From an uncultured bacterium (lineage in GTDB: Bacteria; Patescibacteriota; Gracilibacteria; Absconditabacterales; Absconditicoccaceae), in assembly GCA_947168815.1 (NCBI GenBank), contig CAMVNG010000006.1, forward strand, positions 1 through 52,397: a DNA stretch of 52,397 nucleotides. The letters are read 5' to 3'. A program made the position numbers and the translations under genes. Each line of letters starts with the position of its first letter. Within the stretch, counting starts at the first letter, position 1. Below are positions 10,333-49,051 of the stretch, piece after piece. The notes beneath the pieces were generated by a model that did not search any database, was not told where the DNA came from, and saw nothing but the letters and a program-made list of their open reading frames with translations.

Positions 10333-10351
10333 AAATTTTTTATTTATATAT

Positions 10352-10377
10352 TAGCTCCTTTCTTAGGAGCTTTTTTT
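10352..10377 (+). terminator. Intrinsic terminator
   Basis: AGCTCC...GGAGCT stem followed by seven T. Confidence 0.88.
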
Positions 10378-10468
10378 AAACTTCATTATTGGAGTTATCT
10401 TAATATGTATTTTTGATTTTATTTTGTTCTCTGCTATTTTTTTATTATTTTATTTTGAGAAATTTCTT

Positions 10469-13400
10469 ATGTATAGCGTTAAAGATAATGCAGAGACTAA
10501 ACTTCAATTCTGAATTTCTTCTGTTGCTACTTCTTTAGTTGTTGAGGAATGAACTTGAGGTGTTTTTCCTACTCCTCCATTTATAGCGGTTTTGAATAAG
10601 AGAAATGATGATTGAGGTATTATCAAATCTGAGAAAATTGAAGTAACTGCAATTGATTGAGATCAGTTAACGATTACGAGATGATTTGATGATAGTGAGG
10701 CAACTGATTTTAATGCATGAGATTATGTTTCTCTTTTTGTTATGGCTAAACATATTCAGGAACTTCAGTCTGCTTTGGCTGATATTCAGAAAGATATATG
10801 AGAAGAATGATTAGTTAAACCAGCGAGTGATGAGTTAGCTTGAACAGTTAAAATAGCGAATAATGATGCGATTATTAATGTTATTAATAAAGATGAAAGA
10901 GGTGTTTATTATGTGCCTAAAGTTTCTGATTTAGTTCCTGAATATATTGGTTCACTCTTTATTTCGGCTTCTGATATTGCTCTTTGAGCTGATACGTATT
11001 TACATACACAACCTGATTATGATGAGTGTACTCAGGCTTTTTATGTTTGAAAAGAAACTAGTAATAGAATTTTAGATCTTCAATGATTATCTAATTGAAG
11101 AAGCTTTGATACGATTAGTTTAAAACTCGATAAATGATGATTACCTACGACTAAATTAGTTGTAGAAGTTATGAGTGCTAGTGTGAATTGAAATTATTGG
11201 AGTTGAGAAACAGTTATTGCTTCATGAGAGGTTAATGCTGATGATATTGTTTGAGAATGATTATATACGGTTCTTTTAGATAGAACGGTTTCTCTTTCTA
11301 TTGGCTCCCCTTTTGTTGTGAGATTAAGACAAACTGATAGTATTGTTAATGCAATGAACTATTTTATTTGTTTCTGACATCCTACTAGGAACTCAGATAT
11401 CTTTTCATGAAATTATATTGTGGATAATGTGCTTGTTAATACCTGAAATGATATTTATTTTAGCTGTCTTTGAAAACTTACTCAGGCTATAAGGCAAAAT
11501 ACAAATTGAAGAATTGTCCATGATGATTCTTATACAAAATATAGTGCTGAGGTTGTTGCTTCAGGATTTTCTTATCCTTTTAATCTTTCTTCTTCTGATA
11601 TAGATTCAAATCAGCCTATTAGTATTTCATGAACGGTACAATTCGTTCAGCATTCTAATAATGGAGCTACATTATATTCTTCTAGTGATGCGAAATGATG
11701 GATGACGTATTTGTGAGTTGAATCGAATAAGGTAAGAGATATTTCAGCTAATTGAAGAACCTATACGATTACGCTAAATAATAAATCGGTTTCTTTTTCT
11801 GATTTAGCGAATGGAGTTATTGCTATTATCTGACAGGCATCGTTATCTACCTGGGACCATAGATGGAGTGAATGTTATTTTACAATCAGTTGGAACTTAA
11901 CCGTTAATTTTACTGATATTAATTCATGATGAGATGTACAGGCGGTATATATTAGAAATAGTGCTAAAAGATTATGATTAGTTTCAGCTACTTTAGTATG
12001 AAAACATATAGATTGAAGTTTTATTTATCCTAGGAATGATTGATCGCATGCCGTTATTGCATGACAGAAATGAGATGATTGAAAGAAGGTGTTATTAAAG
12101 GTAGAAGATAAGTGTTTTTGGTATAGATATGATTGAGATACTAATCGAACTAAGCTTTCAGATTTTTATGATTTTATTTGACCTGAATGACCTAGAGGTT
12201 TACAGGGTCCTAGAGGGGCTATGGGGTGAATTAATTATAGAGGGAGATTAAGTTCTTTTAATGATTTACCAGAAGAATGAAGTATAGAATGAGAGGCCTA
12301 CTCTGTTTGATGAGTCTTGTATATTTGGGATTGAGAATATTTTAGGAATTCTGGAATAAGTTCTTCAGCTATTAATTTAGTATTAGATTGGGAAAATATT
12401 GAGAATAAACCTGATTATGTAAGAATTTCTGATGAGGTTGCTTATCAGTTTACACAATGAAATTATGATTATGTGTGGAGGCTAACTGAAAGACTTTATA
12501 CTCAGATTAATCTTCTATGAAGAGATCTAAATTTAAGTTCATGAGAAAATATTCAAGAGCTTGTATCTAGGTGGTATGGGAAAATTATTTCTAATGATTA
12601 TTTCTATACGAATTATGTTTTACCTTCTACGTATGCATTAGGGTTTATTAATAAAGAAAATACTAATAATTTCTTTCAAACCTGTACTCATTTTTATGAG
12701 AATCTTAATTATTTAGATAGTAGTGCTAATTTTAGTTCTTGAGATACATATACGGAGTTTCTTAATGCTCCTTTGGAAATGGCTAAGCTTTGGAAATCTG
12801 ATATTATTAGAAATCAGTATTTTTTGAAAAGTAGTTATGCTCAATCGCTTTATAAGAACTTAGATGAGGATAAAGTCGTTGCTTGTATTCTTGCTTGTAT
12901 TGATGAAGATACTTCAACTTGTTCGAGTTTCTCTTCATTATTTAGTAATACTCGTTTGGTGTGATTAATTATGCAAAGTGAACCAGCTTTATGCGCTATT
13001 GCTTATAATACTTGAGCGATATCTTCTTTTGCATCTACAACGTTAACGGTTAATAGATTCGTTGAATCTTCTAGTGCATTATCTCTTTTCAGTAATAACA
13101 CTGATGCTATTAATGTGATTTATTCTACTCAAAAATCTAGGAATGCTCTCTTTTCTTCTAATAGTGCTTTAAGCTATGTTTTGAGTCATGAGACCTCCTC
13201 TGCTGCTCTTGCTTTAAATACTGATGGTTTGAATGCTTTTGCTACCAATTTGACGTATCTTTCTACTTTATTATTAAATCAGCAGTATATTAAGCATGAT
13301 GTTTTCACTGCATTGCAGGCTTATTCATATAAGATTTATACGTTAGTTTCTCAGCGTCTTACTTGATCGAATTATTATAGTTCTGATAGAGATAGAAGTG

Positions 13401-13696
13401 ATCTTTCTTGAGCTTCTAAGATTGATTTTATTAATAATTATTATGATTTCTGAGATACTGCTATTATCTTTCCTGCTTATTATTGGGATGATAATGATTC
13501 TTCTTCTCAACAGATTAAGTCTCAAAGATTTGATGAACTTATTTGATATCCATTAAGGACTTATTGATATTGAAACGTTAATATTATTGCTAATTCTTCA
13601 GATGAAAGACCTATGTGATTTGCTTTGAAATGATGCCGTTTAGTTAATTTATGATGATCTAATTATGGTGCTTGAGTTACTGTCTTCACTTTTTAA
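10469..13696 (+). CDS. Phage tail-fibre / receptor-binding-like protein
   Basis: 1075 aa with TGA as Gly. Residues about 1-100 carry a phage-tail pattern: KIEVTAIDGDQLTITRG, then FNAGDYVSLFVMAKHIQEL. Residues about 130-560 are beta-rich and could be carbohydrate-binding jelly rolls (IALGADTYL...). Near residue 570 there is a short collagen-like stretch, GPEGPRGLQGPRGAMG, a common fibre shaft. The remainder (700-1075) is Ser/Asn/Tyr-rich with FxxNTxALS-type repeats and a probable receptor-binding tip. Holin and CHAP lysin follow at 14.7 and 17.0 kb. A non-phage surface adhesin is possible but less likely. Confidence 0.8.
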
Positions 13697-13705
13697 TTTT
13701 AGAAA

Positions 13706-13798
13706 TAAAAAAAGACGGCCTCATTCAGACCGTCGGTTTACTTAGCTCATTGGTTAGCCCTCCATAATTAGTTAGTTATTTACTTTGGTTATTTATTA
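13706..13798 (-). ncRNA. Candidate small RNA or mini-ORF unit, element A
   Basis: Minus-strand promoter (13805..13834), about 90 nt, then GACGG...CCGTC terminator and T7. The only translation signal is a perfect GGAGGG 7 nt before ATG AGC TAA (13750-13742), a two-codon ORF. It may be an sRNA or a start-stop regulatory element. Confidence 0.5.
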
Positions 13799-13804
13799 AC
13801 AACT

Positions 13805-13834
13805 ATAATATATTAATTTACTTACAAATGTCAA
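13805..13834 (-). promoter_or_regulatory. Sigma70-like promoter
   Basis: TTGACA, 18 nt, TATTAT, driving element A. Confidence 0.6.
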
Positions 13835-13872
13835 GAGAAAATAAAAAATATTATTTACTTGTAAAAATTAAG

Positions 13873-13899
13873 GAAAAGGCGCTAGTAAACTAGCAGCCT
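13873..13899 (-). terminator. Intrinsic terminator
   Basis: Imperfect GGCTGCTAG-TTTA-CTAGCGCC hairpin followed by TTTTCC, after the 13915..14223 gene. Confidence 0.65.
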
Positions 13900-13914
13900 T
13901 TCGCGTTAGAACTT

Positions 13915-14223
13915 TTACTCTTTGGTAATGTTTACGACTTCGATTCTAATTCTATCGACGTGGTGACCTGTTCCAAAACCAATCCTTGAGATGACTAGTT
14001 TATCATGTTCATTGGTTGATCTATCGATTGAAACCAGATTTGAAATGATTTTTGGCTCGATGATTCGATAGCTTTTTGGAGCATGAATGTGATAGTACGA
14101 TTGCCTTATTGCTTCAATATAGGCTGAGTCGTTGTCGTTGTACTCTACTTCGAGAAGTACTTCTTTGCCGTCTCTTTCATCCACTCTTGAATTGATAGAG
14201 ACCTTGAATTGGACTTTTTTCAT
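13915..14223 (-). CDS. Small beta-rich protein, TGA-free class
   Basis: 102 aa, MKKVQFKVSINSR start, no membrane segment, glycines all GGN, TAA stop. TTGAAA-17-TATACT promoter at 14257..14285 and a C/A-rich leader (GAACAAATACAAAAAACC). It resembles the 2390, 2804 and 31253 genes in size and opening beta strand, not in obvious sequence. One of a tight minus-strand series of short units (elements A to D and 15181..15621). Function unknown. Confidence 0.72.
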   Translation of the reverse strand: MKKVQFKVSINSRVDERDGKEVLLEVEYNDNDSAYIEAIRQSYYHIHAPKSYRIIEPKIISNLVSIDRSTNEHDKLVISRIGFGTGHHVDRIRIEVVNITKE

Positions 14224-14256
14224 ATGTTAAATGGTTTTTTGTATTTGTTCTTTAAG

Positions 14257-14285
14257 AGTATATGAATTTGGAATTTCTATTTCAA
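14257..14285 (-). promoter_or_regulatory. Sigma70-like promoter
   Basis: TTGAAA, 17 nt, TATACT; serves the 13915..14223 gene, directly after the terminator of element B. Confidence 0.7.
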
Positions 14286-14288
14286 CAT

Positions 14289-14407
14289 AAAAGAAAGCCC
14301 CTCCGCATATAGGAGGGGCAGGGATGAATTTGATACGACCGGGTTTATCGCCGGCCAAGGTGGAGACTCCGAACCTAATCGCGTCGGAGGGACTAGTGTT
14401 TCTGTCC
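14289..14407 (-). ncRNA. Candidate structured RNA, element B
   Basis: About 120 nt from a TTGAAA-17-TATATT promoter to the terminator CCCCTCC...GGAGGGG plus T-run. Markedly GC-rich against the AT-rich surroundings. Internal stems: TCCGA...TCGGA and CCGG...CCGG. An open frame exists but has no ribosome-binding site and no ATG start, so an RNA is preferred. Confidence 0.6.
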
Positions 14408-14413
14408 AACTAA

Positions 14414-14442
14414 AATATATGAATCCGCTCTTTTAATTTCAA
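14414..14442 (-). promoter_or_regulatory. Promoter, TTGAAATTAAAA family
   Basis: TTGAAA, 17 nt (begins TTAAAA), TATATT. The same first 12 nt occur at 14649 and 19813. Confidence 0.72.
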
Positions 14443-14454
14443 GAGATTTTTTAG

Positions 14455-14614
14455 AAAAAGGCCCCTCCGATTACGATACGGTAGGGGCCGGGGAGAAATG
14501 ATTGACGGTTTTGCCGGGAGATAACCGGCTGGACCCACAACGGGTGGGTTGATATAATGGAGGTAAATGCGTTGATATATGTCTCCTTAGTAACGGTGAG
14601 ATATACACATCGTT
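14455..14614 (-). ncRNA. Candidate structured RNA, element C
   Basis: About 160 nt between a TTGAAA-17-TATAGT promoter and a strong GGCCCCT...AGGGGCC terminator with T5. Internal stems CCCAC...GTGGG and GCCGG...CCGGC. AAGGAG occurs but no ATG follows it. GC-rich island, no supported ORF. Confidence 0.6.
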
Positions 14615-14620
14615 GGCAAT

Positions 14621-14649
14621 ACTATATTCAACCGTACTTTTAATTTCAA
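14621..14649 (-). promoter_or_regulatory. Promoter, TTGAAATTAAAA family
   Basis: TTGAAA, 17 nt (begins TTAAAAG), TATAGT; drives element C. Confidence 0.75.
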
Positions 14650-14661
14650 GTGAATTTTATT

Positions 14662-15123
14662 ATGAGTGAAAAAGCAATTAGTATCCTTTGAGGAATCAGT
14701 TTTTGATCTCTTTTATCTTATTTATGAATAGATTGAGAGACTTTGAGTATTTTTGCTGTAGTTTTATTCTTAGATTTTGTCTTTTGAATTATTGATGTTT
14801 ATTTATTTGATAAGTCTTTGATTACATCTAAGAAAGCATGGAGGTGATTATTGAATAAGATAACAAAGTTATTACTTCCTATGATTGTTGTAATTGTTTT
14901 GAAATGAGTTTGATTTAAAGAAATGGATTTTCTGATTTCTTCCATTATGTGAATAATGATTGTATCAGAATGATATTCAATTATCTGACATCTCTACTCT
15001 ATTAATACCTGAAAACAATTACCTGAAATTGATGCTTTTGAGTTGTTGATTTCAAAGATATTGAGTATTTTTAAAAATGTTATTGATGCTTTTTTAGATG
15101 ATATCGATAAGGAAAAATCATAG
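14662..15123 (+). CDS. Phage holin (Phage_holin_4-like)
   Basis: 153 aa with TGA as Gly. Three to four hydrophobic segments, with FLDFVFGIIDVYLFDKSLITSK (residues about 33-54) matching the LDxxxGxxxA...SSK signature of toxin-secretion/phage-lysis holins; WRGLLNKITKLLL and SEGYSIIGHL follow as in that family. It would form the membrane lesion that lets the CHAP lysin at 16978..17508 reach the wall. It sits antisense to the minus-strand RNA series. Stop TAG. Confidence 0.82.
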
Positions 15124-15125
15124 TA

Positions 15126-15160
15126 AGAGAAAAGACACCGATTATAAACCGATGCCTTTC
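15126..15160 (-). terminator. Intrinsic terminator (with G-U pairs)
   Basis: On the minus strand AAAGGCATCGGTT pairs fully with AATCGGTGTCTTT if G-U pairs are allowed; on the plus strand the same stem has mismatches, so it works only for the 15181..15621 gene. Confidence 0.75.
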
Positions 15161-15180
15161 ATGCTTCATCCGAAACGGAA

Positions 15181-15621
15181 TCAGCGTGCTTTGTTAATGC
15201 TAGGTTTCTTGAACGTATTTCCAACTTTGCATGAGCCATATAAGACTGCGGCCAGAGCTGAACCTATCATGACTACGCTTAATAGCATTGCGAGAATACC
15301 TGCTGCCTCGCTATCTAGACCTAATCTGGTGAACATCCCGCAAGATACATCGCATAAAGCTTTGATCGTTGCGTAGGGTGAACCCATACTGCACATTAGG
15401 AGGACGAAGAGTCCAACACCAACGGCAAGTGAGATTAATTCGGTTTTCGACATGCGAACCAGCATGAACAGTATAGTCTCAATGCCGGCCATTCCAACTA
15501 AGCCAGCCAGGACATGCCCAGCTAAACCAATCTTAACATGTTCATCGTTTCCAACAGAGTAACCGAAGACGATTCCGAACACCACAGCAATTAACAAGCA
15601 AATAAGATCAATTTTTTTCAT
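15181..15621 (-). CDS. Four-helix membrane protein, ends at TGA
   Basis: 146 aa, four hydrophobic segments (about 8-24, 31-54, 62-78, 105-128), Gly-rich. About 16 glycines are all GGN. Consensus promoter TTGACA-16-TATAAT (15659..15686), then a leader with AAACAAAAACAAAAAGAAAGGG and a good Shine-Dalgarno. The stop is TGA (15183-15181), 20 nt before the terminator; code 25 would add 13 residues and end in the terminator loop. Family unknown; a conjugation- or phage-type small membrane protein is possible. Confidence 0.75.
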   Translation of the reverse strand: MKKIDLICLLIAVVFGIVFGYSVGNDEHVKIGLAGHVLAGLVGMAGIETILFMLVRMSKTELISLAVGVGLFVLLMCSMGSPYATIKALCDVSCGMFTRLGLDSEAAGILAMLLSVVMIGSALAAVLYGSCKVGNTFKKPSINKAR

Positions 15622-15658
15622 AACTGTACCCTTTCTTTTTGTTTTTGTTTCTAGGATT

Positions 15659-15686
15659 ATTATATCTATTTTCTAATATATGTCAA
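15659..15686 (-). promoter_or_regulatory. Consensus sigma70 promoter
   Basis: TTGACA, 16 nt, TATAAT: the closest match to consensus in the window. Confidence 0.82.
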
Positions 15687-15701
15687 TATTTTCAGATTTT
15701 G

Positions 15702-15797
15702 AAAAAAGAGCCACCTCTGTGACTCCCCTAGAAACCTAGGAACTGAATATAACATTAATGTTTAATTGTTGATGTATAGGTACGACCCTCACGGGCT
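15702..15797 (-). ncRNA. Candidate small RNA, element D
   Basis: About 95 nt from a TTGAAA-17-TATATC promoter to terminator GAGTCACAGAGGTGGCTC plus T6. Inner CCTAG...CTAGG hairpin. No Shine-Dalgarno with ORF seen. Confidence 0.55.
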
Positions 15798-15803
15798 GAG
15801 ATA

Positions 15804-15832
15804 GATATAGTTATTTTTCTTCTTATTTTCAA
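15804..15832 (-). promoter_or_regulatory. Sigma70-like promoter
   Basis: TTGAAA, 17 nt, TATATC, driving element D. Confidence 0.68.
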
Positions 15833-15908
15833 TAGGTAATAACTATTTGGCCTTGAAAAATTATTCTTTTTTTAGTATTCTATCTCTTGCTTTATATCTC
15901 TATTTTAA

Positions 15909-16301
15909 ATGAAAGGTTGTCTTCAACATACTAATAGTCGCTGAGATACTGATTACTTTTTTTCTATGGATAAAAAGGATTTTGATGAGTTACTTGAGAA
16001 ATGAGAAATTGAATCTTCAGTTTTTTCTGATTGATTCGACACTAAGAAGCAGCTATTTATTACTTTGCATGCTGATTTGTGATATTGAAATGAATCTATT
16101 ACTCAGGATATCAATAGTATCAGTATAAAATTCTCATATAAGCTTTTAGGAATGCTTATGAATTATGATAGAGATACCTTTGAACATCGTTATAATCCTA
16201 AATGAGATAAATTTATTTTCTATATTAAAGATTCTTATCAGAAACTTTGCCTGGATCATAGTTTAAAGATGGCAACGGAAGAGACTGAAAAAAAGTGATA
16301 G
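15909..16301 (+). CDS. Unknown protein in the lysis region
   Basis: 130 aa with about eight TGA glycines; cytoplasmic, charged, Tyr/Phe-rich. It ends TGA TAG, so the last residue is Gly under code 25, and the stop lies in the terminator stem AAGTGATAGA...TCTATCACTT. Between the holin and the CHAP lysin, convergent with the RyR-domain gene. No family recognised. Confidence 0.7.
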
Positions 16302-16325
16302 ATTTATTTCTATCACTTCTTTTTT
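16290..16325. terminator. Terminator between convergent genes
   Basis: AAGTGATAGA...TCTATCACTT stem with T-run on plus strand and A-run on the other side. Confidence 0.85.
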
Positions 16326-16810
16326 TAATTATTCTGATCTTTGATTATTCTTGTTGCTACTTTTTTTATGGCATCAATTATTTGAACTCTATCTTTTGCT
16401 TTTTCTTTTTCAGGTAATTCTTCATATGGTACGAATAATTCAGGTTTAGATACTTTTTTCCATGAATTTCTTTCCATCCATGAGTCATGTACTTTACTTG
16501 ATAGCTCTTCAATTGTTTCTAAATCGTATCCTTTTTTATTTAAGTTTATTACCTCGTCATATACTAAATCTATTACTAATTTCGCTGCTTCATAATTTTC
16601 TTTTTGCCGATCAATTGGTAGATCTACAAATGTGGTGTTGGCGATATCAACTTCATCTGTTCCATTCTTTTTAATCCAATTCTTATCTTTTGTTTTCTTT
16701 ATTCTTGGTTCAAAGGTTCAGTCTTCATTCATTTTTAATCTATTCCTTCATTTATCATGTAATTCTGTCGCTAGTTGCATGATAAGTTCTTCTTTAAGGT
16801 TTTTATTCAT
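16325..16810 (-). CDS. RyR-domain protein
   Basis: 161 aa. The C-terminal half has the ryanodine-receptor-repeat pattern: VHDSWMERNSWKK, then KPELFVPYEELPEKEKAKDR. Bacterial and phage RyR-domain proteins exist; their role is unknown, and some are linked to nucleotide or second-messenger sensing. Only two TGA glycines. Minus strand inside the lysis region, so possibly cargo. Start at ATG 16810, no Shine-Dalgarno. Confidence 0.75.
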
Positions 16811-16977
16811 TCTTTTTATATTTCTATAAAAGTTTTATACTTCATTATATACCTTATATGATAAATATCAATTTTGTTGCGTTTTTTACTCCTCTTTTTT
16901 TGGAGTTATTTATCTTTTAGATTTGTTTCTCATTCTTTGAATTATTATGCTTTAATTTTATTTTTTATCTTTTAGTT

Positions 16978-17508
16978 ATGAATAGACCATATAAAGCATT
17001 TAAGGATAAGTGGATTGGTAAAAGAATTGATTATGATTGAGCGTATTGATTTCAGTGTGTTGATTTGATTAAACAATATGCTGATGAGGTTTTATGATTA
17101 TGAAGAATTTGAGCGATTTGAAATGCAAATAAGGTTCAGAATTCTTCTACTTTTAAAAGTTTTTCTAAACTATGAGTTAAGGATTTAATACAATGAGATA
17201 TTATTATTAGAACTAGATGAAAATACTGACATATTGCTATTGTAGATCATATTCTCAATTGAAGAGTTTATGTCTTAGAACAGAATGGCTCATGAAAGAA
17301 TAGTTGAAATTGATTATGAGATAATGCTATTAGAGTTAAGGACTACCCTATTAATTGGTATGATGTTGTTTTAAGGAATGAGTCAATAATTCATAATTTT
17401 GAAAATGAATTGTTTGTTGTTCAAGAAAAGATTAAGGAGTATGAAGAGAAGATAAAGATTACAAGAGAATATTGAGAAAGTATTAGCTATAGGTTTTCTT
17501 CTAAATAA
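16978..17508 (+). CDS. CHAP-domain endolysin / peptidoglycan hydrolase
   Basis: 176 aa with about 18 TGA glycines. CHAP catalytic residues are visible: Cys27 in FQCVDLIKQY, His85 in GKYGHIAIVDHI, and Glu101/Asn103 in VLEQNGSG. The CHAP fold covers residues 1-135; the rest is a charged helical tail with no binding domain. There is no signal peptide, so release would depend on the holin at 14662..15123. The family cleaves wall cross-bridges or the Ala-amide bond. Confidence 0.88.
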
Positions 17509-20173: not shown

Positions 20174-20298
20174 GCATTTAGAAGAAAAAAGGGCCTATAT
20201 TGTAAATAAAGGATTTTTCACTTGAAAATTGAGTTAAAAAATCTAGCATTTAGTTGCCTTTAATGAGTTTATGAATCTTTAAAGGGATTCAGAACAAA

Positions 20299-20328
20299 TT
20301 ATGTTTTATATTCTTATCATTTATAACA
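20299..20328 (+). promoter_or_regulatory. Conserved HU promoter, copy 2
   Basis: TTTTATATTCTTATCATTTATAA before ATG, matching the element before HU copy 1 with single differences. Confidence 0.5.
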
Positions 20329-20604
20329 ATGACAAAGACACAATTAACAGAAGCTCTTGCTAGCGAATTAGGAGTTTCTAAGAAATTAGCTGGTGAATTA
20401 GTTAACTGCTTTATCTCTAACGTAGTTAAAGGAGTTAAAAAAGAAGGAGAAGTTAGAATTACTGGATTCGGAACTTTTAAGAAATCTAAGAGAAAGGCTA
20501 GAGAAGGAGTTAATCCTCAAAACCCTAAACAAAAGATTAAGATCCCTGCAATGAACGTTGTAACTTTCAAGGCTGGATCTGAATTCAAAAAAGCAGTTAA
20601 ATAG
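20329..20604 (+). CDS. hup: DNA-binding protein HU, copy 2
   Basis: 91 aa, same architecture as copy 1 (9374..9649): N-terminal helices, GFGTF, arm GVNPQNPKQKIKIPA. Differences are Ser for Asp in the IxNVV stretch, Thr for Gln in RIxGFG, and Glu for Asp near the end. Glycines only GGA/GGT. Silent differences between copies show the duplication is not very recent or that both are under protein-level constraint. Confidence 0.97.
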   Translation: MTKTQLTEALASELGVSKKLAGELVNCFISNVVKGVKKEGEVRITGFGTFKKSKRKAREGVNPQNPKQKIKIPAMNVVTFKAGSEFKKAVK

Positions 20605-29988: not shown

Positions 29989-30399
29989 TTAAATCTGATA
30001 ATTGAACTTTGAATATATTTCTTTATGATTTTCTCTTATTTGTTTCTGCCACCAAACCGTTTCATTTCATCATTGAATGTCTGTTTTGGTATAAAGTAAT
30101 AAAATCTGAACTTCTTTCTCGCTTTCATCTACATAAGCAATAATTCTATTTCATGAAGTCTTTGGAGATTCGTTGGATCATGCTATTTTAAATTCACATT
30201 TTGCTATGTAGCAGCTATCTGATTTATGAATCCTTTCGGCTTTGGATGTCTTGATAAACATATCTATACGACTCAGCATTTCATTAATGGCGTTCATAGT
30301 TTTATCCCAAACGTTGTTATATCTTTTTTTAAATGCTTTAATGAAATGTCTTTCTGCATAATCTGTAGTTGTTACTTTGTATCACGAATTAGTAGACAT
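29989..30399 (-). CDS. Toxin of a Panacea-type toxin-antitoxin pair
   Basis: 136 aa. The start codon lies inside the end of the antitoxin gene (11-nt overlap), the usual arrangement of such pairs. Sequence: helical N-terminus (ERHFIKAFKKRYNNVWDK), then strands CYIAKCEFKIAGSNESPKTSGNRIIAYVDESEKEVQ written here as two parts: CYIAKCEFKIAGS and NRIIAYVDESEKEV. The layout recalls RelE/HigB-like mRNA interferases, an inference only. Six or so TGA glycines. Confidence 0.68.
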
Positions 30400-31072
30400 T
30401 ATCAGATTCTTCTTGAGTAATTAAATCATATGGAATAATTTCCTTATCGTTACAAATCATTCGAGGCAATTGCTGGTGGGTAAAATTAACTATTTCCTGT
30501 GTGTCATTTTCTTTCCATTTTTTAGCGATTTTTTCCAAAAGATTCATTTCATCTTCTGATAATTTATCGTGTTTTGGTTCCTCAATATTTTCTATCATGT
30601 AAGCTTTACCTTTTTGTTTTACATTTATACTTTCTGCTTCTTGTAATTGTTCTATTGTGCTAAAATATGCATCAGGTACTGGTCATTGTTGAATTCTTCT
30701 ATATTCTAATCATGTAATAGAATTTAAATTGTAGTAATATCGTGCAAAATCTAACAAATAACAAAGTTTTGCAAGCTTTGTTTTTGTGATTTTTCAGTCA
30801 TCATCAGATCAATATTTGATGAAATTCTTGATAATTTGCTTGTATTTTTCCCAATCTATATCTTTTTGAGCTGTTGTTTGAGTGTCTCATGGTAAAAATC
30901 TAGCTACATCGACTCCAAAAAATTCTGAAATTTTTACAGCTTGTCATAAAGTTGGATCGATTTTTCAATTTTCTAATTTTGAAAAGGTCTGGCGTGTGAT
31001 TCCAAGTAAATCTGCTAGTTGTTGCTGACTTGCTCATCTCTCGATACGTAACTCTTTGATAGAATTGCTCAT
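30389..31072 (-). CDS. HTH + Panacea (DUF4065/SocA-like) antitoxin
   Basis: 227 aa. Residues 1-65 are an XRE-type helix-turn-helix (IKELRIERGASQQQLADLLG, then ITRQTFSKLENGK). Residues about 95-200 are the Panacea/DUF4065 domain: ITKTKLAKLCYLLDFARYYY, LEYRRIQQGPVPDAYF, and the late KHDKLSEDEMNLLEKI. Panacea antitoxins neutralise many unrelated toxins, and the HTH fusion suggests autoregulation through the palindrome upstream. Followed by its overlapping toxin gene. Confidence 0.88.
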
Positions 31073-33271: not shown

Positions 33272-36200
33272 TTAAACATCATCCACACTATAAGTACGAA
33301 GTTCTACATATTTTTTTGATTCAGAGTTTGGGAATACCGAGAATTTAGAAGATTTAGAATTTATATTACTATATCTATTAATTCTACTTACATTTTCTCA
33401 ATTATTCATTCATCATCGAGGTAAAATTGTACAGAAATTTTGGATAAATTGGATATTTTCATCCACTCAAATCTCAGCATCAGATCAAATATTTAAATGA
33501 TATCCTGTTCAATTTCTACTATTATAGTCCGCTTTTCAAACAACTAAATCCTTTTTCTCTTCTTCTTTCCTATCATCTCTGAGTTCTAAAAGTTTTTGCA
33601 TATCATTGATATCTAACAAATTCAGTTCTTGCAATAAATGGATTTCCAACAAAGCAGCAATTGGATTTGTAGATGGTTTAGTCGCAAATTCATATACTCA
33701 TTCATGTTCTATTCAAACTTTAGCGTTTTCTACAACCTTATTTACAACATCATAGTACTCATTTCATGTTGTTTGTTTATACCAGCGTATAAAATAGTTG
33801 GTCATCTCAAATTCTAACCCCACACTTATTTTTAATCAATCTGGGATTTTATCTTCTGGATACATATCAAGCACTTTATTATATTCTCTTAACTTTTCAA
33901 TTAACATATGGTTTAAATCTTTAGCTTTAACTCAATCTCTCTGCAGTTTTTCAATTGTTAGTATAAGAATAGAATATCACTTATTAATTCATCAAATACT
34001 ATCCACAAATCATAATACCTCTTCTGTTTCTTCCTTATTAAATTCCACATTCAATCAAGGATACAAGGTATTTATAGAATCATTTAAGAACTTTTCATCT
34101 GAATCTTTGGGTCCAGAAATACTAAATCACCTTAATAAGAATTTAGTTGCATTTGGATTAATCGTTTTTCAGTCAAAGCACTTCCAAAAGTCAGAATAAG
34201 CAAGTCCTTTATGTATACAAAAATCTTCTAAAAGATCGAGATAGTTTTCAGTTTCCTCAAAAGAAAGACCTGATATATACGATAATAATTTATTAATATC
34301 ACTTCTCGTAGTCTGTGGCAACTTACGACTTATTTCATTAATTTTCTTATAATATTTTAGATATCACTTGTGATCATCCTCTTTAAATTCAGATAGATTT
34401 ACTAAACAAGAAGTATAATCTCATATTAAACTTTGATATTCTACTATATCATCTCTATTTAATCAAAATTTTTCCAATAGTGTCTTTAAATTCTCAGGAA
34501 CCATATCAAGTACAATTTCTTCTAATTCTGCGAAATCAGCAACAGTTGTTACTCATGCACTTTGTAGGGATTCTATATTTTGCTTTATTTTTTCTGGATC
34601 TCAATTTACAATAAAATTGTATAAATTTAGGAAATCATCAAGCTGAGTTATTCATGCCCCCTTTAAGACTTCTATATTTCCTGAATTTCAATAACAAATA
34701 ATATCTTGTAATTTTAGGTAATCAGCAACCTCTCTTATTCATGCACCTTTTAGGGATTCTATATTACTTTTTATTTGTTCTGGACCTCAACAACGAATAA
34801 TATATCGTAATGTTAAAAGATCATCAATTTTAGCTATTCATAAACTATTTAAGGCTTCTATATTCGCCTTTGTTTTTTCCGGTTCTCAAAAATAAATAAT
34901 TTCTTTTATTTTTACTAAATCATCAACCTTAGTTATTCATGCATTTTTTAGTGCTTCAATATTCCCCTTTATTTTTTCTGCATCTCATCAGCGAATAATA
35001 TCTTGAAATTTTAAGAAGTCATCAGCAGTTGTTATTCCCACACTTTTAAATGCTTCTATATTTTCTGACCTTCATCAGCTAATAATATCTTGTAATTTTA
35101 CGAAATCATCAATCTCTGTTATTCATGCACTTTTTAGAGCTCCTATATTTGTCTTTATTCTTTCTGCATCACTATTATAAATAGTATCGTTTAATTTTAT
35201 GAGATCATCAGCATTTGCTATTCATATACTATTCAGTGCTTCTATATTCTCCTTTGTTTTTTCTGGTTCTCAATAACTAATAATATTTCGTAATTTTGCG
35301 AAATCATCAGCAGCTGTTATTCAAATACCTTTTAGGGTTTCTATATTGGCCTTTATTTTTTCTGAATCTCAATAATGAATAATTGTTCATAATTTTGCGA
35401 AATCATCAGCAGCTGTTATTCATACACTATGCAGTGCTTCTATATTCTCTGGAATTCAAGTATAAATAACACCTTCTAGTTTTATGAGATCATCAACAGC
35501 TGTTATTCATACCTTTTTTAAAGACGCTACATTCGTCTTAATTTGTTCTGGATTTCAACGATAAATAATATCCTGTACTTTTATGAGATCATCAGCACTT
35601 GTTATTCATATGCTTTTTAGTGCCTCTATATTCTCTGGATGTCAAAAACGAATAACATCAGTTAATTTTACGAAATCATCGATAGCCGTTATTCATACAC
35701 TTTGAAGTGCTTCTATACTCGTCTTTATTTTTTCTGAATCGCAATTACGAATAATATCTTTTACTTTTACGAAATCATCAACAGCCGTTATTCATACACT
35801 TTGAAGTGCTTCTATACTCGTCTTTATTTTTTCTGGATAAGAAAAACGAATAGTATCCTTTAGTTTTATAAAATCAGCAGTTTCTGTTATTCATACACTT
35901 TTTAGGGCTGCTATATTCGCCTTTATTCCTTCTGGATCTCAATCAGAAGCAAAATCTTTTAATCTTACGATATAATCAACATCTGTTATTCATAGATCTT
36001 TTAGGATTGCTATACTTTCTGGTCTTCAATAATGAATAATATCTTTTACCTTTTTGAAATCAGCAATCTCTGTTATTCCTAAATCTTTTAGAGCTTCTAT
36101 ATTCTTCTTTGTCCTTTCTACATCTTGAATATAAGTAGTATCCTGAAATTTTACGAAATCATCAGCATCTTTTATTCACATACTATACAGTGTTTCTATA

Positions 36201-37411
36201 TTTTCCGGATATCAAAAACGAATAACATCTATTAATTTTACGAGATCATCGATATTTGTTATTCATACCTTTTTCAGTGCTTCTATATTTATCTTTATTT
36301 TCTCTGGATCTCAACGATATATAATATCTTGTAATTTTACGAGATCATCGATATTTGTTATTCATACACTTCTTAGTGCTTCTATATTCGTCTTGATTAC
36401 TTCTGTATCTCAATAACGAATAATATTTCGTATTTTTTTGAAATCATCAATCTCTGTTATTCATATACTTCTTAGTGCTTCCATATTCTCCTTTACTTTT
36501 TCTTGCTCTCCTGAACTAATAATATGTCGTAATTTTAAGAAATCATCAGGATCTGTTATTCATAGATATTTTAGGATGTCTAGCTTCTTCTTTACTGTTT
36601 CTGCATCTCGATAACGAATAATCTCTTTTAATTTTATAAAATCATCAATCTTAGTTATTCATGAGCTTTTTAGTAATCCTATATTTGTCTTTACTCTTTC
36701 TAGATCGCAATACGGAATAAGAGGTCGGAATTTTTCTAGATCATCAACATTTTTCCCTCATAGTTCTAATAGAGCTTCTATTGTTGCTGCATCTCATCAT
36801 TTAATAACATCTCTTAATTTTACAAAATCATCAATCTTAGTTATTCATGCATCTCTTAGCATTCCTATGTTCGTCTTTATTCTCTCTGGATCTCAATTAA
36901 TAATAAGCTCTAACATTTTTTGGAGATGTTCATCTCACAGATTTTTAAAATCTTCTTTCCCCATATTTAATGCTTCATGAAAAGCATCAATATTCCCTTT
37001 TATTGTATCTTTAAATCCTTTTAATTCCTCTTCATTTTCTAATAAATCATTTACCTCTTTTTCCAATCATTCTATATTTTCTCATCATTTTAATACCTCG
37101 ACTATTAATTGGGTTCCTAAAAATTCATATCAGGCAGGAAATAATGATTGTACTTTGGTTTTCAATTTTGCCATACGACTTGAGAATTTTGTATATTCTC
37201 ATTGTAGATTTTCAGATTCTGGATCAGAAAAAAATCAGTTAAAACTATTTTTTAAATCTGATTCTTTATGCATTTCTGTAGAATCTAATGATAATGCTCA
37301 TAATATTTCTTCTTTCTTCTCTTGTGTAATATTTCAAAGACTTTCTTCATAAGTTAAAAATCACACAGCTTGTGCTTGTAATTCTTCATTAGATTTCTTT
37401 CTGATGGCCAT
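33272..37411 (-). CDS. Giant helical-repeat (solenoid) protein
   Basis: 1379 aa with about 90 TGA glycines. Residues 1-165 are a charged helical head. About 165-990 hold roughly 25 tandem repeats of 33 aa (some 29): GITxxDDxxKxxxII-xx-GDPEKIKxNIEALKxx. The two residues after the II pair (YR, RF, SS, RY...) vary between repeats, the rest is conserved. The C-terminus (about 1000-1379) is non-repetitive and ends NRYSNINSKSSK...VELRTYSVDDV. The period and the EKIKxNIEALKxxGI pattern recall mTERF and, less so, TALE-like nucleic-acid-binding repeats; a protein-binding scaffold is equally open. Confidence 0.82.
34500..36950 (-). repeat. Protein-coding tandem repeat, about 99-bp period
   Basis: About 25 degenerate units encoding the solenoid. 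On the plus strand each shows ATCATC near GATGAT, TTATTCAT (glycine TGA plus Ile-Thr), and a GCTTCTATATT (NIEA) block. Confidence 0.88.
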
Positions 37412-40193: not shown

Positions 40194-40808
40194 ATGCCTG
40201 ATAATTGAACTATACTTATTATTGTTTTTACAGCTTTTATTTTTACTGTTTTTTTGTTGATTTGAGTTGCTGTTATTTGTAATGGTATATTCTTTTCAAA
40301 AATTAGAAAATCTAAAATTGAAAGAAAGGAAGATATTTTCTCTTGGAATGAAAAGAGATTCTTTAGAACTTTAGAAAAAATATTAAAGGATAAATATTCT
40401 GATAAATATTTAATTTTTCCTCAGTTTAGATTAGCTGATTTATTTAAAGTTCATGTTGAGGATGAAGATGATAGTTCTTATGATTTAAAAATTAAGTGAC
40501 ATGTTGATTTTTTGATTGTAGAAAGAGAAAACTTGAGACCTGTTTTATGAATCGAATTAAATGGTAAAAGTCATCATTGATTTGCTCAAAAAGCTGCTGA
40601 TGAATTTAAGAAAAAATTATATGATGAATCATTGAATTGTGATGAAAAATTAAGTATGATTGTTTTTCGAAACAATGAAATGAAATATAATGATAAAGAA
40701 TGGGAATTCTTTAAGAAAAAACTTGAATTAAGGATTGATGACGCTTTAAGAAAAAAGGAGTACCCCGAAGTGTACCCATGAGCCACAATGCAGCTCACCG
40801 ATGAATAA
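40194..40808 (+). CDS. DUF2726 nuclease-like membrane-anchored protein
   Basis: 204 aa. N-terminal membrane segment (TILIIVFTAFIFTVFLLIGV), then a DUF2726-type domain of restriction-endonuclease-like fold: FFRTLEKIL, FPQFRLADLF, then HVDFLIVERENLRPVLGIELNGKSH written in part as HVDFLIVE and LGIELNGKSH, where Asp and Glu fit a PD-(D/E)xK core. First gene of the plus-strand defence-like cluster. A 222-nt gap with a T-rich leader separates it from the DUF262 gene. Confidence 0.75.
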
Positions 40809-41030
40809 TATACTCAAAAATCTTAAAATTTCAATAAGTTATAACAAACTTCCTTACATATGAGACTTTCAAAGAAATAAAAAAGATTGAAGAAAGCAAT
40901 GGAATAACAATAATGAAGAAAAGTATGTAGTTATTAATGAAAGTATTATTAATTAGTTTAAATTATTGATTTTAATAAAAATTTTCCTACTATTTGTTTT
41001 GTTAGTTTTTTATCATTATATTTTTAATAA

Positions 41031-42827
41031 ATGGAAAAAATTGATATAAGTCCTTCTACTATAAAAGGTGATATTCTTTTAATAGATTCAGAATATAAAA
41101 TTCTTCGTATACCAGATTATCAAAGAAATTATGTTTGGTGAGATGAAAGAGTTGAAGAATTTTGGTCTGATTTGACTGAAAGAAAAATGGTCTTACCTTT
41201 TCTTTGATCATTTATTTTAAAAGAAAATGATGAAAGTTCTTTCCCTGTTATTGATATCGTTGACTGACAACAAAGAACAATTACTATAGCTCTTTTCCTT
41301 TCTGCGTTAAGAAATATTGCAAAGGAAAATGATTGTTTAGCTTTTGCATTAAGAGTTCAAAGATATCTTGAACAAGATTGAAGTTGATGAGAACATTCAT
41401 GAAAATATTTTCTTGAATGCTGGTCTAGTGTGCAAGAATTTTTTGAACAGCATGTACTCCATTACGAATGAAATTTATTAAAAGATAAGTTACCTACAAT
41501 ATATAGAACTAAACAAGAAACGTTATGGAATATGGTTAAAAATTATAAAAAGATTTATTGAAAAATAAATTCTTATATAGAAGGTAAAAATAATATTGCA
41601 GATGTTTTAACTGAGCTATTAAATAAAATACTAAATTATCAAATTGTTGTTATAAAGGTTCATAGTGATGAAGAAGCGTATATTGCATTTGAGATTGTTA
41701 ATGCAAGTTGAGTTAAACTTGAAAATATTGATTTATTAAAAAATCTTTTTATAAAAGAATCTTATAGTAAATATTCTAAAGAAGAGCAAGAAAAAGTTAA
41801 GGCAAGATGGGCTGAGATGACTGATAAAGTTTCTGATTCTAATACAAAATCTAATATTGAATCATTTTTAAAACACTTTTGGAGTGCTAGGAAATGATAT
41901 ATAACTTGAAAAGATTTATATGTGGCTTTTAAAAGGGAAATATGAAATCTTTGAGTTGATGTTCTTTCTGAGCAATTACTTGAAGATGCTAGATTGTATA
42001 ATCAATTTTGAAATCCTGAATGATCAGTATTCTTAGAACGTTCTGATTATAATTCTTCAGTTATAAAAAGTTTAACTGCATTAAAAACATTTTGAATCAC
42101 TCAAGTTTATATTTTGTTTTTAACTGTTTTGAGATATAAAAATGAAATATGAGATAAAAGGGTAAAAAAGATATTTAAATTACTAGAATATTTCCATTTT
42201 ATATATTCTGTTGTTTGAAAATGACAAGCTAATAAAGTTGAAAAATTATATTGAAATTATTGTGTTGAGTTTATAAAGGCAATTGAAAGCTCTCAAGGAT
42301 TAGATGATTCAGAACGTAGTAATCGTATACAGAAGGTGTTTGATAAATTAAAGCGCGAAATGGTTGATCTTTTGAACGAATATGTTCCAAATGATGATTT
42401 TAAATCTTGATTCATGAATATTCAATTAAAATTATCAAACAAAGAATTAATTCGTTATATATTAACTTTATATGAATCTGCTATTACTCCTTGAGCTAAA
42501 AGACCTGATTTTGAATTCACAAATATTGAACATATTTATCCACAGGATGATAGCAAACAATCTGAATCAAATTCTTTATTAAATAATATATGAAATCTAG
42601 CTTTATTAGAAACAAAATATAATTCTGAAGCTCAGAATAAACCTTTGCCTGATAAAATTCCTATTTATAAAAAGAGTGAATATAAACAAATTGCTGATGT
42701 AGTAACTGAATATGAATGATCTAGTGAAGAGAATCGTGTTCGATCTGAAGAAAAGACATCTAAAAGAGCAAGAGTTATTGCTGAAGCTATTGAGGGGTTT
42801 ATTGAAGAGAAATTCAATAAAATGTAG
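41031..42827 (+). CDS. DUF262/DUF1524 (GmrSD-like) protein
   Basis: 598 aa. DUF262 at the N-terminus: IPDYQRNYVWGDERVEEFW and VIDIVDGQQRTITIALFL (DGQQR, ParB/Srx-like nucleotide-binding motif). C-terminal DUF1524 HNH nuclease: NIEHIYPQ, NNIGNLALLE, YNSEAQNK. This is the domain pair of GmrSD-type IV restriction enzymes and SspE-like defence effectors that cut modified phage DNA. TAG stop; the MazG gene follows after 69 nt. Confidence 0.9.
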
Positions 42828-42896
42828 AATATTCTTAAATTATTTTCGTTTATTAAATGCTTATGTGAAGTTTATATTTTTTTCATCTGTATAGTT

Positions 42897-43238
42897 ATGG
42901 ATTACGAGAAAATTAGAGATGCTATTCTTGATTTCAGAGAAAAAAGAGATTGGAAACAGTTTCATAATCCAAAAGATTTAGCGACTGCAATTGCTATTGA
43001 GGCAGCAGAATTACAAGAAGTTTTCTTATGGAAATCGCAACAAGATTCATATGAAATAGGTAAAAATGATCCTCATGTAAAAGAAGAGTTTTCTGATATT
43101 TTTAATTTTATGGTCCTATTTGCTGAGGAATGTTGAATTGATATTGAAAAAGAAGTCTTAGCAAAGTTAGAAAAGAATGGTCAAAAATATAGTGTAGATA
43201 AGGCTAAAGGTAAATCAGATAAATATGATAAACTTTAA
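42897..43238 (+). CDS. MazG-like nucleotide pyrophosphohydrolase
   Basis: 113 aa, all-alpha MazG/dCTPase type: IAIEAAELQEVFLW carries the EExxE-like metal site and EEFSDIFNFMVLFAEE the second ExxD half. It would hydrolyse (d)NTPs to monophosphates. One TGA glycine. The start is 69 nt after the DUF262 gene and the stop 14 nt before the DUF2075 helicase, so these form an operon. Confidence 0.9.
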
Positions 43239-43252
43239 TTTCTCTTAATATT

Positions 43253-45109
43253 ATGTTAGTATATTCTTGAACTAAGGATTCTTTTTGTAGTGATGTATGG
43301 TCTAATCAGATAGCTGATAAGATTTTATCTAGAATTCATGAACTTTGATTAAGTTGATGATCTCCTGCTGAATATATGTCTTGGCAAAATTCTATGTGAT
43401 TTATGAGAAATATTCTTGAAGATTCTTATTTTTCTTGAGATATTGATGTAGCTATTGAATATCAGATACCGAGAACTTCAAAAAGAGTTGATTTTATGAT
43501 TTGATGATCTGATGAGAATTGAAATGATAATGTTGTAATTGTTGAATTAAAGCAATGGCAAAGAGCTGAAAAACTTTGAGATGAAATGTCTCATAGTGTT
43601 AAAGCTTTTACTTGATGAGCTGAAAGAATCGTCTCTCATCCTTCATATCAGGCTTTTTCATATTCTGTTTTTATTAAAAATTCTTCTCAAGAAGTTGAGG
43701 ATAAACATATTTGAGTTATACCTTGTGCGTATCTTCATAATTATGATCCTTCTTGTTTAGATTCTATTAATGACAATATTTATAAGATTTGGTATGATGA
43801 AGCTCCCTTCTTTATTAAAAATCAAGTACAAGATATTACAGATTTTATAAAAAAATATATTTGTCGTAAATCAAAGGATTGAGAATTATTATATAGAATT
43901 GATCATTGAAGAATAAAGCCTTCAAAAGCTTTGCAAGATTGTTTAGTTTCATTGATGCAATGAAATCAGGAATTCATTCTTTTAGATGATCAGATTGTTG
44001 CTTTTGATATGTGTAAACAGATAATGTTTCAGTGCCAAAAGGATAGAAAAAAGAGAACTTTGGTTATTCAATGATGACCTTGAACATGAAAATCTGTTTT
44101 GGCTGTTAATCTATTAAAGGAATTCTTAACTAATGATTTAAATGTTTCTTATGTTACTAAAAATAGTGCTCCTAGGGAAGCTTATTTAAAGAAGTTATCA
44201 AATTTCAGATTTAAAGATGAAGTTGCTGTAAAGACTCTTTTTAGATCTCCTTTTTGATTGTGTCATTCTCCTAAGAATTATTTTGATTGTTTGATTGTTG
44301 ATGAAGCACATAGATTAGTAAAACAAATGTATTGAGATTTTAAATGAGAAAATCAGGTAAAAGAGTGTATTAATGCATCTTTATTTACAATTTTTCTTAT
44401 AGATGAAAATCAGAAAGTAACTACAAAAGATATTGGAACTATTGATGAAATTAAAAAATGGGCTAATGAATTATGAAGTGATATTAAATATACTGAACTT
44501 CATTCTCAATTTAGATGTAATTGAAGTGATGAATATATCCAATTTGTTAATAATGTCCTTCAAATTTGAGAACATGTCGATATAGATTCTTCTGAAATGA
44601 ATTTTGATATTGAAGTATTTGATAATCCATCTGAACTACGTGAAAAATTGAGATCTAAAAATATTGATAATAAAGCTAGAATGGTTGCTTGATATTGTTA
44701 TGATTGGAATGTTAAAAATAAGAGATGAGAATGGGATATTGTTATTTGAGATGATTTTAAAGCAAAATGGAATTTAGAATGAGATAAGATTTGGGCTATT
44801 AATCCTAATTCTTTCGATGAGATTTGATGTATTCATACTGCACAATGATTGGAGTTTGATTATGTTTGAGTATTCGTTGGTAAAGATTTATATTTTGATA
44901 GTAATCTTTGAAAAGTTATGGTAGATAGAAATATGATTTCTAAGGATGATAAAACTTCATGAATTAAGAACAAATCTACTAGTGATGAAATGGCTGAACT
45001 CCTTATTAAAAACACCTATAAGACTTTGCTTACTAGGTGACAGAAATGATGTTATATTTATTGTGAAGATGATAATTTGAGAAATTATTTTAAGAAGCTT
45101 ATTAATTAA
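43253..45109 (+). CDS. DUF2075 helicase with N-terminal nuclease-like domain
   Basis: 618 aa with about 40 TGA glycines. Residues about 60-130 hold a PD-(D/E)xK-like core (KRVDFMIGG, then VVIVELKQW). Residues 274 on are an SF1-type ATPase of the DUF2075/Schlafen-like group: Walker A GGPGTGKS (all four Gly are TGA), Walker B CLIVDEAHR, motif III FLIDENQ, motif IV QFRCNGSDEY, and late IHTAQGLEFDYVGVFVG and LLTRGQKG. COG3410-like helicases recur in phage-defence neighbourhoods. Convergent with the exonuclease-MORN gene. Confidence 0.9.
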
Positions 45110-47224: not shown

Positions 47225-49051
47225 ATGGAAGAAAATGAAGGATTATGAGAATCAAACTCATTAGATCTAGAGAAAAAAGAACAAAAAATGATGGAAGATT
47301 TAGCTAAAATAGTTGAATCTTTATCTCAAAATGAATTAGCATGAGCTATTGAGAATGATGTTAATACTCTTATTAGCAAAGCTGAAAATGATTTAAGAAA
47401 ATATTCAGAATTTTTTGCTATTCCTTCTGATGTAACTGAGGAATTTATTAATGAAATATGAAAACTATGAAAAGAAAAGTTACTATCTAAAGAGATAGAT
47501 GATACTACATTAGTTGCTATCTTTGGTGAAGATGTTCTTAAAGTTAGAAGTAATCCTATGTTTAAAAATATATTTCATTCTGAAATAAAATATTTTGTTA
47601 TATTATATAATTTGAAAAAACTTTCTCCTGAACATTATACTGAATATATGGTGCATACTTATAATATCCTTGTCTGATTTGCAGATGATCCTGGCATGCT
47701 TAATACTCATATAAAAACAACCGCTCAGGCTTTTGAAGCTATTTATTCTTTCATTAAATCTAACTGAGATAAAGCTCTTAGTTATTTAAAGTATTGTAGT
47801 GCTTCAGAATGAAGTTATCTTAGAAATAGTACTCAACCTATGGTAGAACATACTGTTAATGAATTGGTTGAAATGAGACGTAAAAATGATGAGAAAGAAA
47901 GATTGATGCATGAAAGAATTGCTGCTTTAGATGGTAAACCCACAAATGATACTTCAGAACAAGTAGAAGTTGAAATACCTGATTATGACTCTTTTGCTGA
48001 TGAGAAAAGAGATGAATATCAATTAATGTATGAATGATTCGGCTCTTCTATTCAGTTCTTTGAAACCTTTATTGATGAACCTGAGTGAAAGAACTTATTT
48101 GATTATCTTAAAGATTACCCTCAAAAGCTTTCCAATTTATGATGAAAGGAAATTAAAGAAATTGATTTAAATACAGAAAAATGAGTTAATTTCTGCTTTC
48201 ATTGAATCCTTTCAATGGTAAGAAGTAGATCTGATATCAATTTCCCTCATTTACCTGATAATCCTTCTCAGGAAGATAGAGAATCTTGGTCTAATCAATG
48301 GTGAAAGATTATAAAAGAATATGAAAAGGTCTTAGGAGATTATATTTCTTTGGATTTTACAACAAATGAAGCTTGAGAAAGAGTAGAAAAACCTAGAGAG
48401 CAAACTTTTGATAAGATTTTCTATATTGCGCAGAACTGAGATTCTATTGTTGAACGTTTTAAAATCTGAAAAGATGTATTATCTTGATTAACAACTAGTG
48501 AGGTTTCTGATTTTTCTTATCAAACTAGCAATAATGAAGATGTAAAAAAAGATAATGCTTACGCTAAGATGGATGAATTTGCTGATGAATTAAGAGATTA
48601 TATGGCTAAAAATCCTGATAAGAAGATTTTGATTTGTATTAATGACCATTGAAACCCTGATGGATCTTCAGAAAATGAAATGGGTAGAGAAGAGTGGTTA
48701 ACTTTAGCTAATATGTCTGAGAATATTAATATTTGGTCTGTTAGATGTTACTTTTGAACTGCTTTTGAAAAAGACCAAATCACTCAGAACAGGTCTTCTG
48801 TTTCATGATTCTCTAATCACTCACCTACTCTATGACCTGTTACCTTATTAGTTGATGAAGCTAATAAAAAGAATCTTTGATATCATGAAATGGAAATTTA
48901 TACAAGATTAAATTATATTACTTCTGTTTCTCCTTTAACTGAAAGTTTACCTTATACAAATTGGAATACTTGAGAAACTGAGGTATGAAAAATTTGAATC
49001 GCTCAAAATAATGTAACTTCTGATAATGCTGATGCTTTAGATTTGGCTTAA
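47225..49051 (+). CDS. Clan CD (caspase-like) cysteine peptidase candidate
   Basis: 608 aa with about 35 TGA glycines. The C-terminal part has a hydrophobic strand ending in His-Gly (KKILICINDHGNPDG, His475), followed 33 residues later by a strand ending in Cys (NINIWSVRCYFGTAFEK, Cys508). That His-Gly / Cys pairing is the signature of clan CD peptidases (caspases, gingipain, legumain families). Residues 1-420 are helical, possibly a sensor. TAA; it overlaps the stop of the convergent 49048..49653 gene. Confidence 0.65.

What the first reader, a model, noticed from the sequence alone, without database searches (positions are those of the whole stretch)
33272..37411. 1379-aa protein of about 25 33-residue repeats, mTERF/TALE-like
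The consensus GITxxDDxxKxxxII-xx-GDPEKIKxNIEALKxx is two helices per repeat. Two positions after the II pair vary strongly while the frame is fixed, as expected if repeats read a ligand such as nucleic acid. EKIKxNIEALKxxGI resembles the mTERF motif; a 33-aa period is also that of TALE-like BurrH repeats. Code 25 hides it from standard gene callers, so the family may be undescribed.
Basis: partly seen in the sequence, partly recalled or inferred. Interest (0 to 1): 0.85.

Follow-up and report, generated by a model that had tools for sequence, protein, structure and literature searches.

The report
Helical-repeat arm fused to ligase
An undescribed family of giant proteins in tiny Patescibacteria joins a coil of repeats resembling those of DNA/RNA-binding mTERF and TALE proteins to an enzyme domain folded like glutamine synthetase, suggesting a bond-forming enzyme that picks its target with a changeable arm; the copy in this window carries one premature stop codon.

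Summary
The repeat ORF is real: minus strand, 33272-37411, genetic code 25, 1379 aa, 25 repeats (18 of 33 aa, 7 of 29 aa; residues about 160-985). A confident AlphaFold2 model (pLDDT 94.6) shows three helices per repeat. The closest solved natural proteins are human mTERF1 and MTERF4, then TAL effectors and BurrH (Foldseek probability 0.94-1.00), but TM-scores are only 0.28-0.40. So the mTERF/TALE comparison holds for the repeat unit, not for the superhelix. Variable positions are 4, 12, 16, 17, 19 and 25, not just two, and the array is acidic (pI 4.9); nucleic-acid reading is unproven.

After the repeats comes a conserved domain that folds like glutamine synthetase (49 of the 50 PDB matches listed; the other is YbdK) and keeps the GhExE, H and ExR residues of carboxylate-amine ligases. 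A single TAA (33272-33274) interrupts the gene; the frame continues to 32174. An uninterrupted ortholog (L031) has Glu there. Relatives occur sporadically in Patescibacteria, one with the standard code, with other N-terminal regions; no Pfam or NCBIfam model covers them. Best reading: an ATP-dependent amide ligase whose diversified solenoid selects the substrate. Substrate and activity are inferred.

The parts
36935..37411 (-). N-terminal region (residues 1-159): helical, acidic, no signal peptide evident by eye; conserved in the ortholog (MAIRKKSNEEL / MVIRKKSREDL)
34457..36934 (-). Solenoid, residues 160-985: 25 repeats (18 of 33 aa, 7 of 29 aa) plus a partial first one; three helices per repeat; consensus GITxxDDFxKLxDIIxxGxPExIKxNIEALKSx
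33986..34456 (-). Helical linker between repeats and ligase-like domain (residues about 986-1142)
   Evidence: conserved in L031
33275..33985 (-). Glutamine-synthetase-fold ligase-like domain up to the stop: GLEFEM (GhExE), VYEFATKP, GYHLNIG, VELRTY
   Evidence: signature after PMC2588565
33272..33274 (-). In-frame TAA at a codon that is Glu (GAG) in the uninterrupted ortholog L031
32174..33271 (-). In-frame continuation: last helices of the ligase domain plus conserved C-terminal domain (GYNYYQGGTENM); the tool's ORF begins at ATG 33232 (352 aa)

Best explanation
The ORF is the larger part of a roughly 1745-codon gene for an ATP-dependent carboxylate-amine (amide/isopeptide) ligase of the glutamine-synthetase fold. 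A long acidic three-helix-repeat solenoid, built like mTERF/TALE-type repeats, forms its N-terminal arm. Shown here: the solenoid fold (model), the glutamine-synthetase-like fold and active-site residues of the conserved domain (model plus alignment), a species-specific array with diversified surface positions, and the interrupting TAA. Inferred: the arm binds a macromolecular substrate, most likely a protein or peptide, and presents it to the ligase domain, which phosphorylates a carboxylate and joins it to an amine. Relatives keep the ligase and exchange or rebuild the N-terminal region, so they would share the chemistry and differ in target. In this genome the stop is probably a recent nonsense mutation, or less likely an assembly error or a split into two chains.
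For: Solenoid model: pLDDT 94.6, pTM 0.85. PDB fold search of the conserved domain: 49 of the 50 listed matches are glutamine synthetases and the remaining one is YbdK, a carboxylate-amine ligase; best probability 1.00. Invariant G-h-E-x-E, E, H and E-x-R in all ten aligned members, in the order that defines the superfamily in PMC2588565; all are kept in the window copy. Purifying selection between window and L031 both before (dN/dS about 0.26) and after (about 0.21) the stop. Arrays re-amplified per lineage: 0 of 22 window repeats have their best match in L031. Between repeats, core positions are conserved while positions 16 and 17 have pN 0.56 against pS 0.29. N-terminal regions differ across the family.
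Against: No sequence-profile match links the ligase domain to any Pfam, NCBIfam or PDB family. Its model is only moderately confident (pLDDT 75), with TM-scores near 0.2-0.3 and no Foldseek E-value below 0.001. The arginine of core strand 5 and the D of the strand-6 motif are not cleanly recovered. No substrate, partner gene or conserved neighbourhood was found. The pN/pS comparison picks variable positions after the fact.
Confidence: 0.5

Rival explanations
1. The solenoid reads nucleic acid, as mTERF or TALE proteins do, and brings the ligase domain to an RNA/DNA-bound or aminoacyl-RNA substrate (GatB, also of this fold, acts on charged tRNA).
For: Closest natural folds are mTERF1 bound to DNA, MTERF4, DNA-bound TAL effectors and BurrH. 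The best, though not significant, PDB sequence match is an RNA-editing complex protein with a RAP domain (E 0.023). Exposed variable positions 12 and 16 are rich in K, R, Q, Y and H.
Against: Array pI 4.9 with 145 acidic against 113 basic residues. No TALE-like code positions. TM-scores at or below 0.40. The ortholog's repeats do not match mTERF.
Confidence: 0.2
2. A protein-binding helical scaffold in which the glutamine-synthetase-like domain is catalytically dead or only structural.
For: A helical repeat array with an acidic surface and diversified exposed residues is equally suited to protein binding. The stop codon falls inside the ligase domain.
Against: All GhExE, E, H and ExR residues are invariant across ten members, and dN/dS is low on both sides of the stop.
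Confidence: 0.2
3. In this genome the gene is simply a decaying, non-functional remnant, and the repeats have no current role (compatible with the family-level explanation above).
For: In-frame TAA in the ligase domain. The gene is not detected in the two same-genus genomes searched.
Against: A single lesion in about 1745 codons; the post-stop part is as conserved as the pre-stop part; the repeat frame stays open with 77 sense TGA codons in the ORF.
Confidence: 0.25

Closest known systems
mTERF family (PF02536; human mTERF1 3n7q, MTERF4 4fp9)
   Same: Three short helices per repeat of about 33 residues; best PDB fold matches (probability 1.00); Pfam mTERF above its cut-off for the window protein (52.8 against 23.1 bits)
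   Different: Bacterial, cytosolic-looking, 25 acidic repeats, fused to a ligase domain; superhelix not matched (TM 0.33-0.36); ortholog repeats below the Pfam threshold
TAL effectors and BurrH/Bat proteins
   Same: 33-34-residue helical repeats; Foldseek probability 0.94-0.99; variable residues in each repeat
   Different: Three helices instead of two; no two-residue base code; 29-residue repeats interspersed; acidic; TM at most 0.40
Glutamine-synthetase-fold carboxylate-amine ligases (GS, GCS2/YbdK, PafA, GatB/E)
   Same: Fold; GhExE on strand 1, acidic residue on a middle strand, H on strand 4, ExR on strand 6
   Different: No detectable sequence-profile relation; long N-terminal helical arm and a unique C-terminal domain (GYN-IQGASENM)

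Membership tests
Carboxylate-amine ligase superfamily (GS fold) | GhExE motif on core strand 1 | tested here: met
   Invariant G, E, E in ten members; window GLEFEM; strand 70-78 in the model
[quoted passage not shown]
   One invariant Glu (HEIAT / YEFAT) on strand 115-118; the second not assigned
Carboxylate-amine ligase superfamily (GS fold) | [HD]x[NH] on core strand 4 | tested here: inconclusive
   H invariant; HxN in window and L031 (HLN), HxT in the others
Carboxylate-amine ligase superfamily (GS fold) | Ex[RK]x2D on core strand 6 | tested here: inconclusive
   E and R invariant (EYR / ELR); D displaced or replaced by S or G in most members
Carboxylate-amine ligase superfamily (GS fold) | Glutamine-synthetase fold | tested here: met
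   49 of the 50 listed PDB matches are glutamine synthetases and one is YbdK; top probability 1.00; model of moderate confidence
Carboxylate-amine ligase superfamily (GS fold) | Match to a described family profile (Pfam, NCBIfam) | tested here: not met
   No significant match; bears on membership of a named family within the superfamily, not on the fold
Carboxylate-amine ligase superfamily (GS fold) | ATP-dependent ligation | not testable with these tools
   Needs biochemistry
mTERF | Pfam PF02536 above gathering score | tested here: inconclusive
   52.8 bits (cut-off 23.1) in P0001, one stretch below E 0.001, lost on scrambling; ortholog has no match, and repetition inflates scores
mTERF | Three-helix repeat unit and its superhelix | tested here: inconclusive
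   Three helices per repeat and top fold matches, but TM 0.33-0.36
mTERF | Binds organellar nucleic acid | not testable with these tools
   Bacterial protein, acidic array
TALE-like (TALE, BurrH) | Two-helix repeat with base-specifying residues in the loop | tested here: not met
   Three helices; at least six variable positions; R/Y/S/H rather than TALE code residues

The most novel reading that the evidence does not exclude
A bacterial mTERF/TALE-like solenoid that reads nucleic acid repeat by repeat and directs a glutamine-synthetase-fold ligase to a nucleic-acid-bound or aminoacyl-RNA substrate, with the specificity rebuilt in each lineage by array turnover.
Probability: 0.1. Interest if true: 0.92.

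Novelty: new variant of a known kind. Interest (0 to 1): 0.62.

Why it matters
It would add a family to the carboxylate-amine ligases (a superfamily that includes the Pup ligase) in which a rapidly rebuilt solenoid may set the target, and show that mTERF/TALE-type repeats are used by ultra-small bacteria outside organelles and plant pathogens. The separation of conserved catalytic and exchangeable recognition parts makes substrate specificity directly testable. It also warns that code-25 genomes hide large modular enzymes from standard annotation.

Tried and rejected
Radical_SAM, RAD51D_N and similar Pfam matches on the repeats: inflated by periodicity; a perfect repeat of the consensus and a scrambled repeat each give unrelated families with E down to 1e-11. 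Amidoligase Pfam families: no match. Anti-phage role: P0001 and the C-terminal piece match nothing in PADLOC, although neighbouring genes do. Viral origin: no relative in viral contigs; fold matches to phage tape-measure proteins are weak. Conserved gene neighbourhood: none between window and L031 or the other loci apart from the gene itself and a small ORF shared with L024. Same-genus genomes show no collinear locus. A paper on hypervariable repeats in a gracilibacterium (PMC6851277) concerns an unrelated PTD-tripeptide surface protein. No Rfam match in the window.

Full report
OBSERVATION. Translated with code 25, the minus strand of 33272-37411 gives an unbroken 1379-aa protein. Twenty-five repeats lie at residues 189-985, preceded by a partial one. 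Eighteen are 33 aa and seven are 29 aa, the short ones lacking positions 22-25. Identity at lag 33 is 0.37 against 0.08 in shuffles; lags 62, 95 and 128 are also high, showing higher-order duplication of 33+29 and 33+33+33+29 blocks. The invariant first Gly is TGA in 20 of 22 repeats and GGA in two, which supports code 25 from within.

STRUCTURE OF THE REPEATS. AlphaFold2 on eight repeats, aligned with other segments of the same gene and of the ortholog, gave pLDDT 94.6 and pTM 0.85 with three helices per repeat. Against 350,542 PDB chains the top natural matches were mTERF1-DNA (E 2.8e-3, probability 1.00), MTERF4, TAL effectors dHax3 and PthXo1, and BurrH; the rest of the top ranks were mostly designed repeat proteins. 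ARM, HEAT, TPR and PUF solenoids, which are abundant in the PDB, are absent from the 50 rows listed, so the resemblance looks specific. TM-scores of 0.28-0.40 show that the overall superhelix differs. Pfam mTERF reaches 52.8 bits on the protein, and one stretch passes E 0.001 in the isolated array. Scrambling the repeat removes the mTERF match, but perfect repetition alone lifts unrelated families to significance, and the ortholog's repeats do not match mTERF. Similarity of the unit is therefore supported; membership is not established.

VARIABLE POSITIONS. Entropy is highest at 17, then 4, 25, 12 and 19, with 16 next. Between repeats overall pN/pS is 0.93, with near-invariant core positions and pN 0.56 against pS 0.29 at 16 and 17, 0.53 against 0.43 at 4, 12, 19 and 25, and 0.22 against 0.28 elsewhere. 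This fits a diversified surface but not a two-residue code, and the positions were chosen after the fact. The array is acidic (pI 4.9; the ortholog's main array 6.3).

THE REST OF THE GENE. Downstream of the TAA at 33272-33274 the same frame stays open to 32174. A relative in G032 (record titled candidate division SR1, L025) carries both parts in one frame. L031 (G166, same family) is an uninterrupted ortholog of the whole gene, with ...SVDDVELFEKNV... where the window has ...SVDDV-stop-LFEKNV...; the codon there is GAG. Identity to L031 is 63% before and 61% after the stop, with dN/dS about 0.26 and 0.21, so the whole enzyme has been under purifying selection and the stop is probably recent. 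An assembly error, or translation as two chains (ATG at 33232), cannot be excluded.

THE CONSERVED DOMAIN. Ten family members align over the region beyond the repeats. The model of the L025 member (pLDDT 75, pTM 0.77) matched glutamine synthetases in 49 of the 50 rows listed, the exception being YbdK, a carboxylate-amine ligase. The defining signature of carboxylate-amine ligases in PMC2588565 is GhExE on strand 1, acidic residues on strands 2 and 3, [HD]x[NH] on strand 4 and Ex[RK]x2D on strand 6. Here GhExE, an E, an H and ExR are invariant and in that order, and the window copy keeps all of them before its stop. The fine details of motifs 4 and 6 and the strand-5 arginine are not cleanly recovered. 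No described profile family matches.

DISTRIBUTION. The domain was found in 7 of 288 genomes of the class and, in a phylum sample of 380, in the window's genome and one further genome that reads it without TGA, that is with the standard code. One genome has a tandem row of at least four full copies. Other members have different N-terminal regions, several visibly helical and repetitive, with no Pfam match in the four that were scanned. Repeats of the window type were also found in proteins with another C-terminal domain (G278, L043). Window and L031 arrays are independent amplifications. The gene was not detected in two same-genus genomes, one of them 77% complete.

MECHANISM. The best-supported account is an ATP-dependent amide-forming enzyme whose N-terminal solenoid selects the substrate; catalysis and target are inferred. 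I favour a protein or peptide target because the array is acidic and because the family keeps the ligase while exchanging or rebuilding its N-terminal region. Nucleic-acid targeting remains possible because the nearest folds bind DNA or RNA.

VERDICT. Partly supported first reading; the more important finding is the solenoid-ligase architecture and the interrupting stop. The repeat unit and the ligase fold are each of known kind; the combination and the family were not found in the libraries searched.

Noticed in passing
window 40194-45109: GmrSD-type restriction protein (PF03235/PF07510; PADLOC HEC-06 and Orf5 models) beside a Schlafen-group-3 helicase protein (PF09848), suggesting a defence island upstream of the repeat gene.
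   Followed up: partly
window 29989-31072 (-): Helix-turn-helix plus Panacea (SocA-like) antitoxin gene with an overlapping 136-aa ORF that matches no Pfam model: a candidate toxin-antitoxin pair.
   Followed up: partly
window 47225-49051 (+): 608-aa protein without Pfam match; motifs NDHG and RCYFG look, by eye only, like a caspase-like (clan CD) peptidase.
   Followed up: no
window 9844-17508: Possible prophage remnant, judged by eye: 1090-aa tail-fibre-like protein, small membrane (holin-like) protein and a CHAP-like 176-aa protein; no profile search was run.
   Followed up: no
L043 2575-5316 (+): Two tandem genes in another class member combine similar GI..DDL..L repeats with a different, unnamed C-terminal domain.
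   Followed up: partly
L017 and L018 (G193:C53): Tandem array of at least four large ligase-family genes with divergent N-terminal regions in one genome.
   Followed up: partly
window 9374-9649 and 20254-20604 (+): Two copies of a small ORF about 76% identical to one in L024; probably a mobile-element gene.
   Followed up: no
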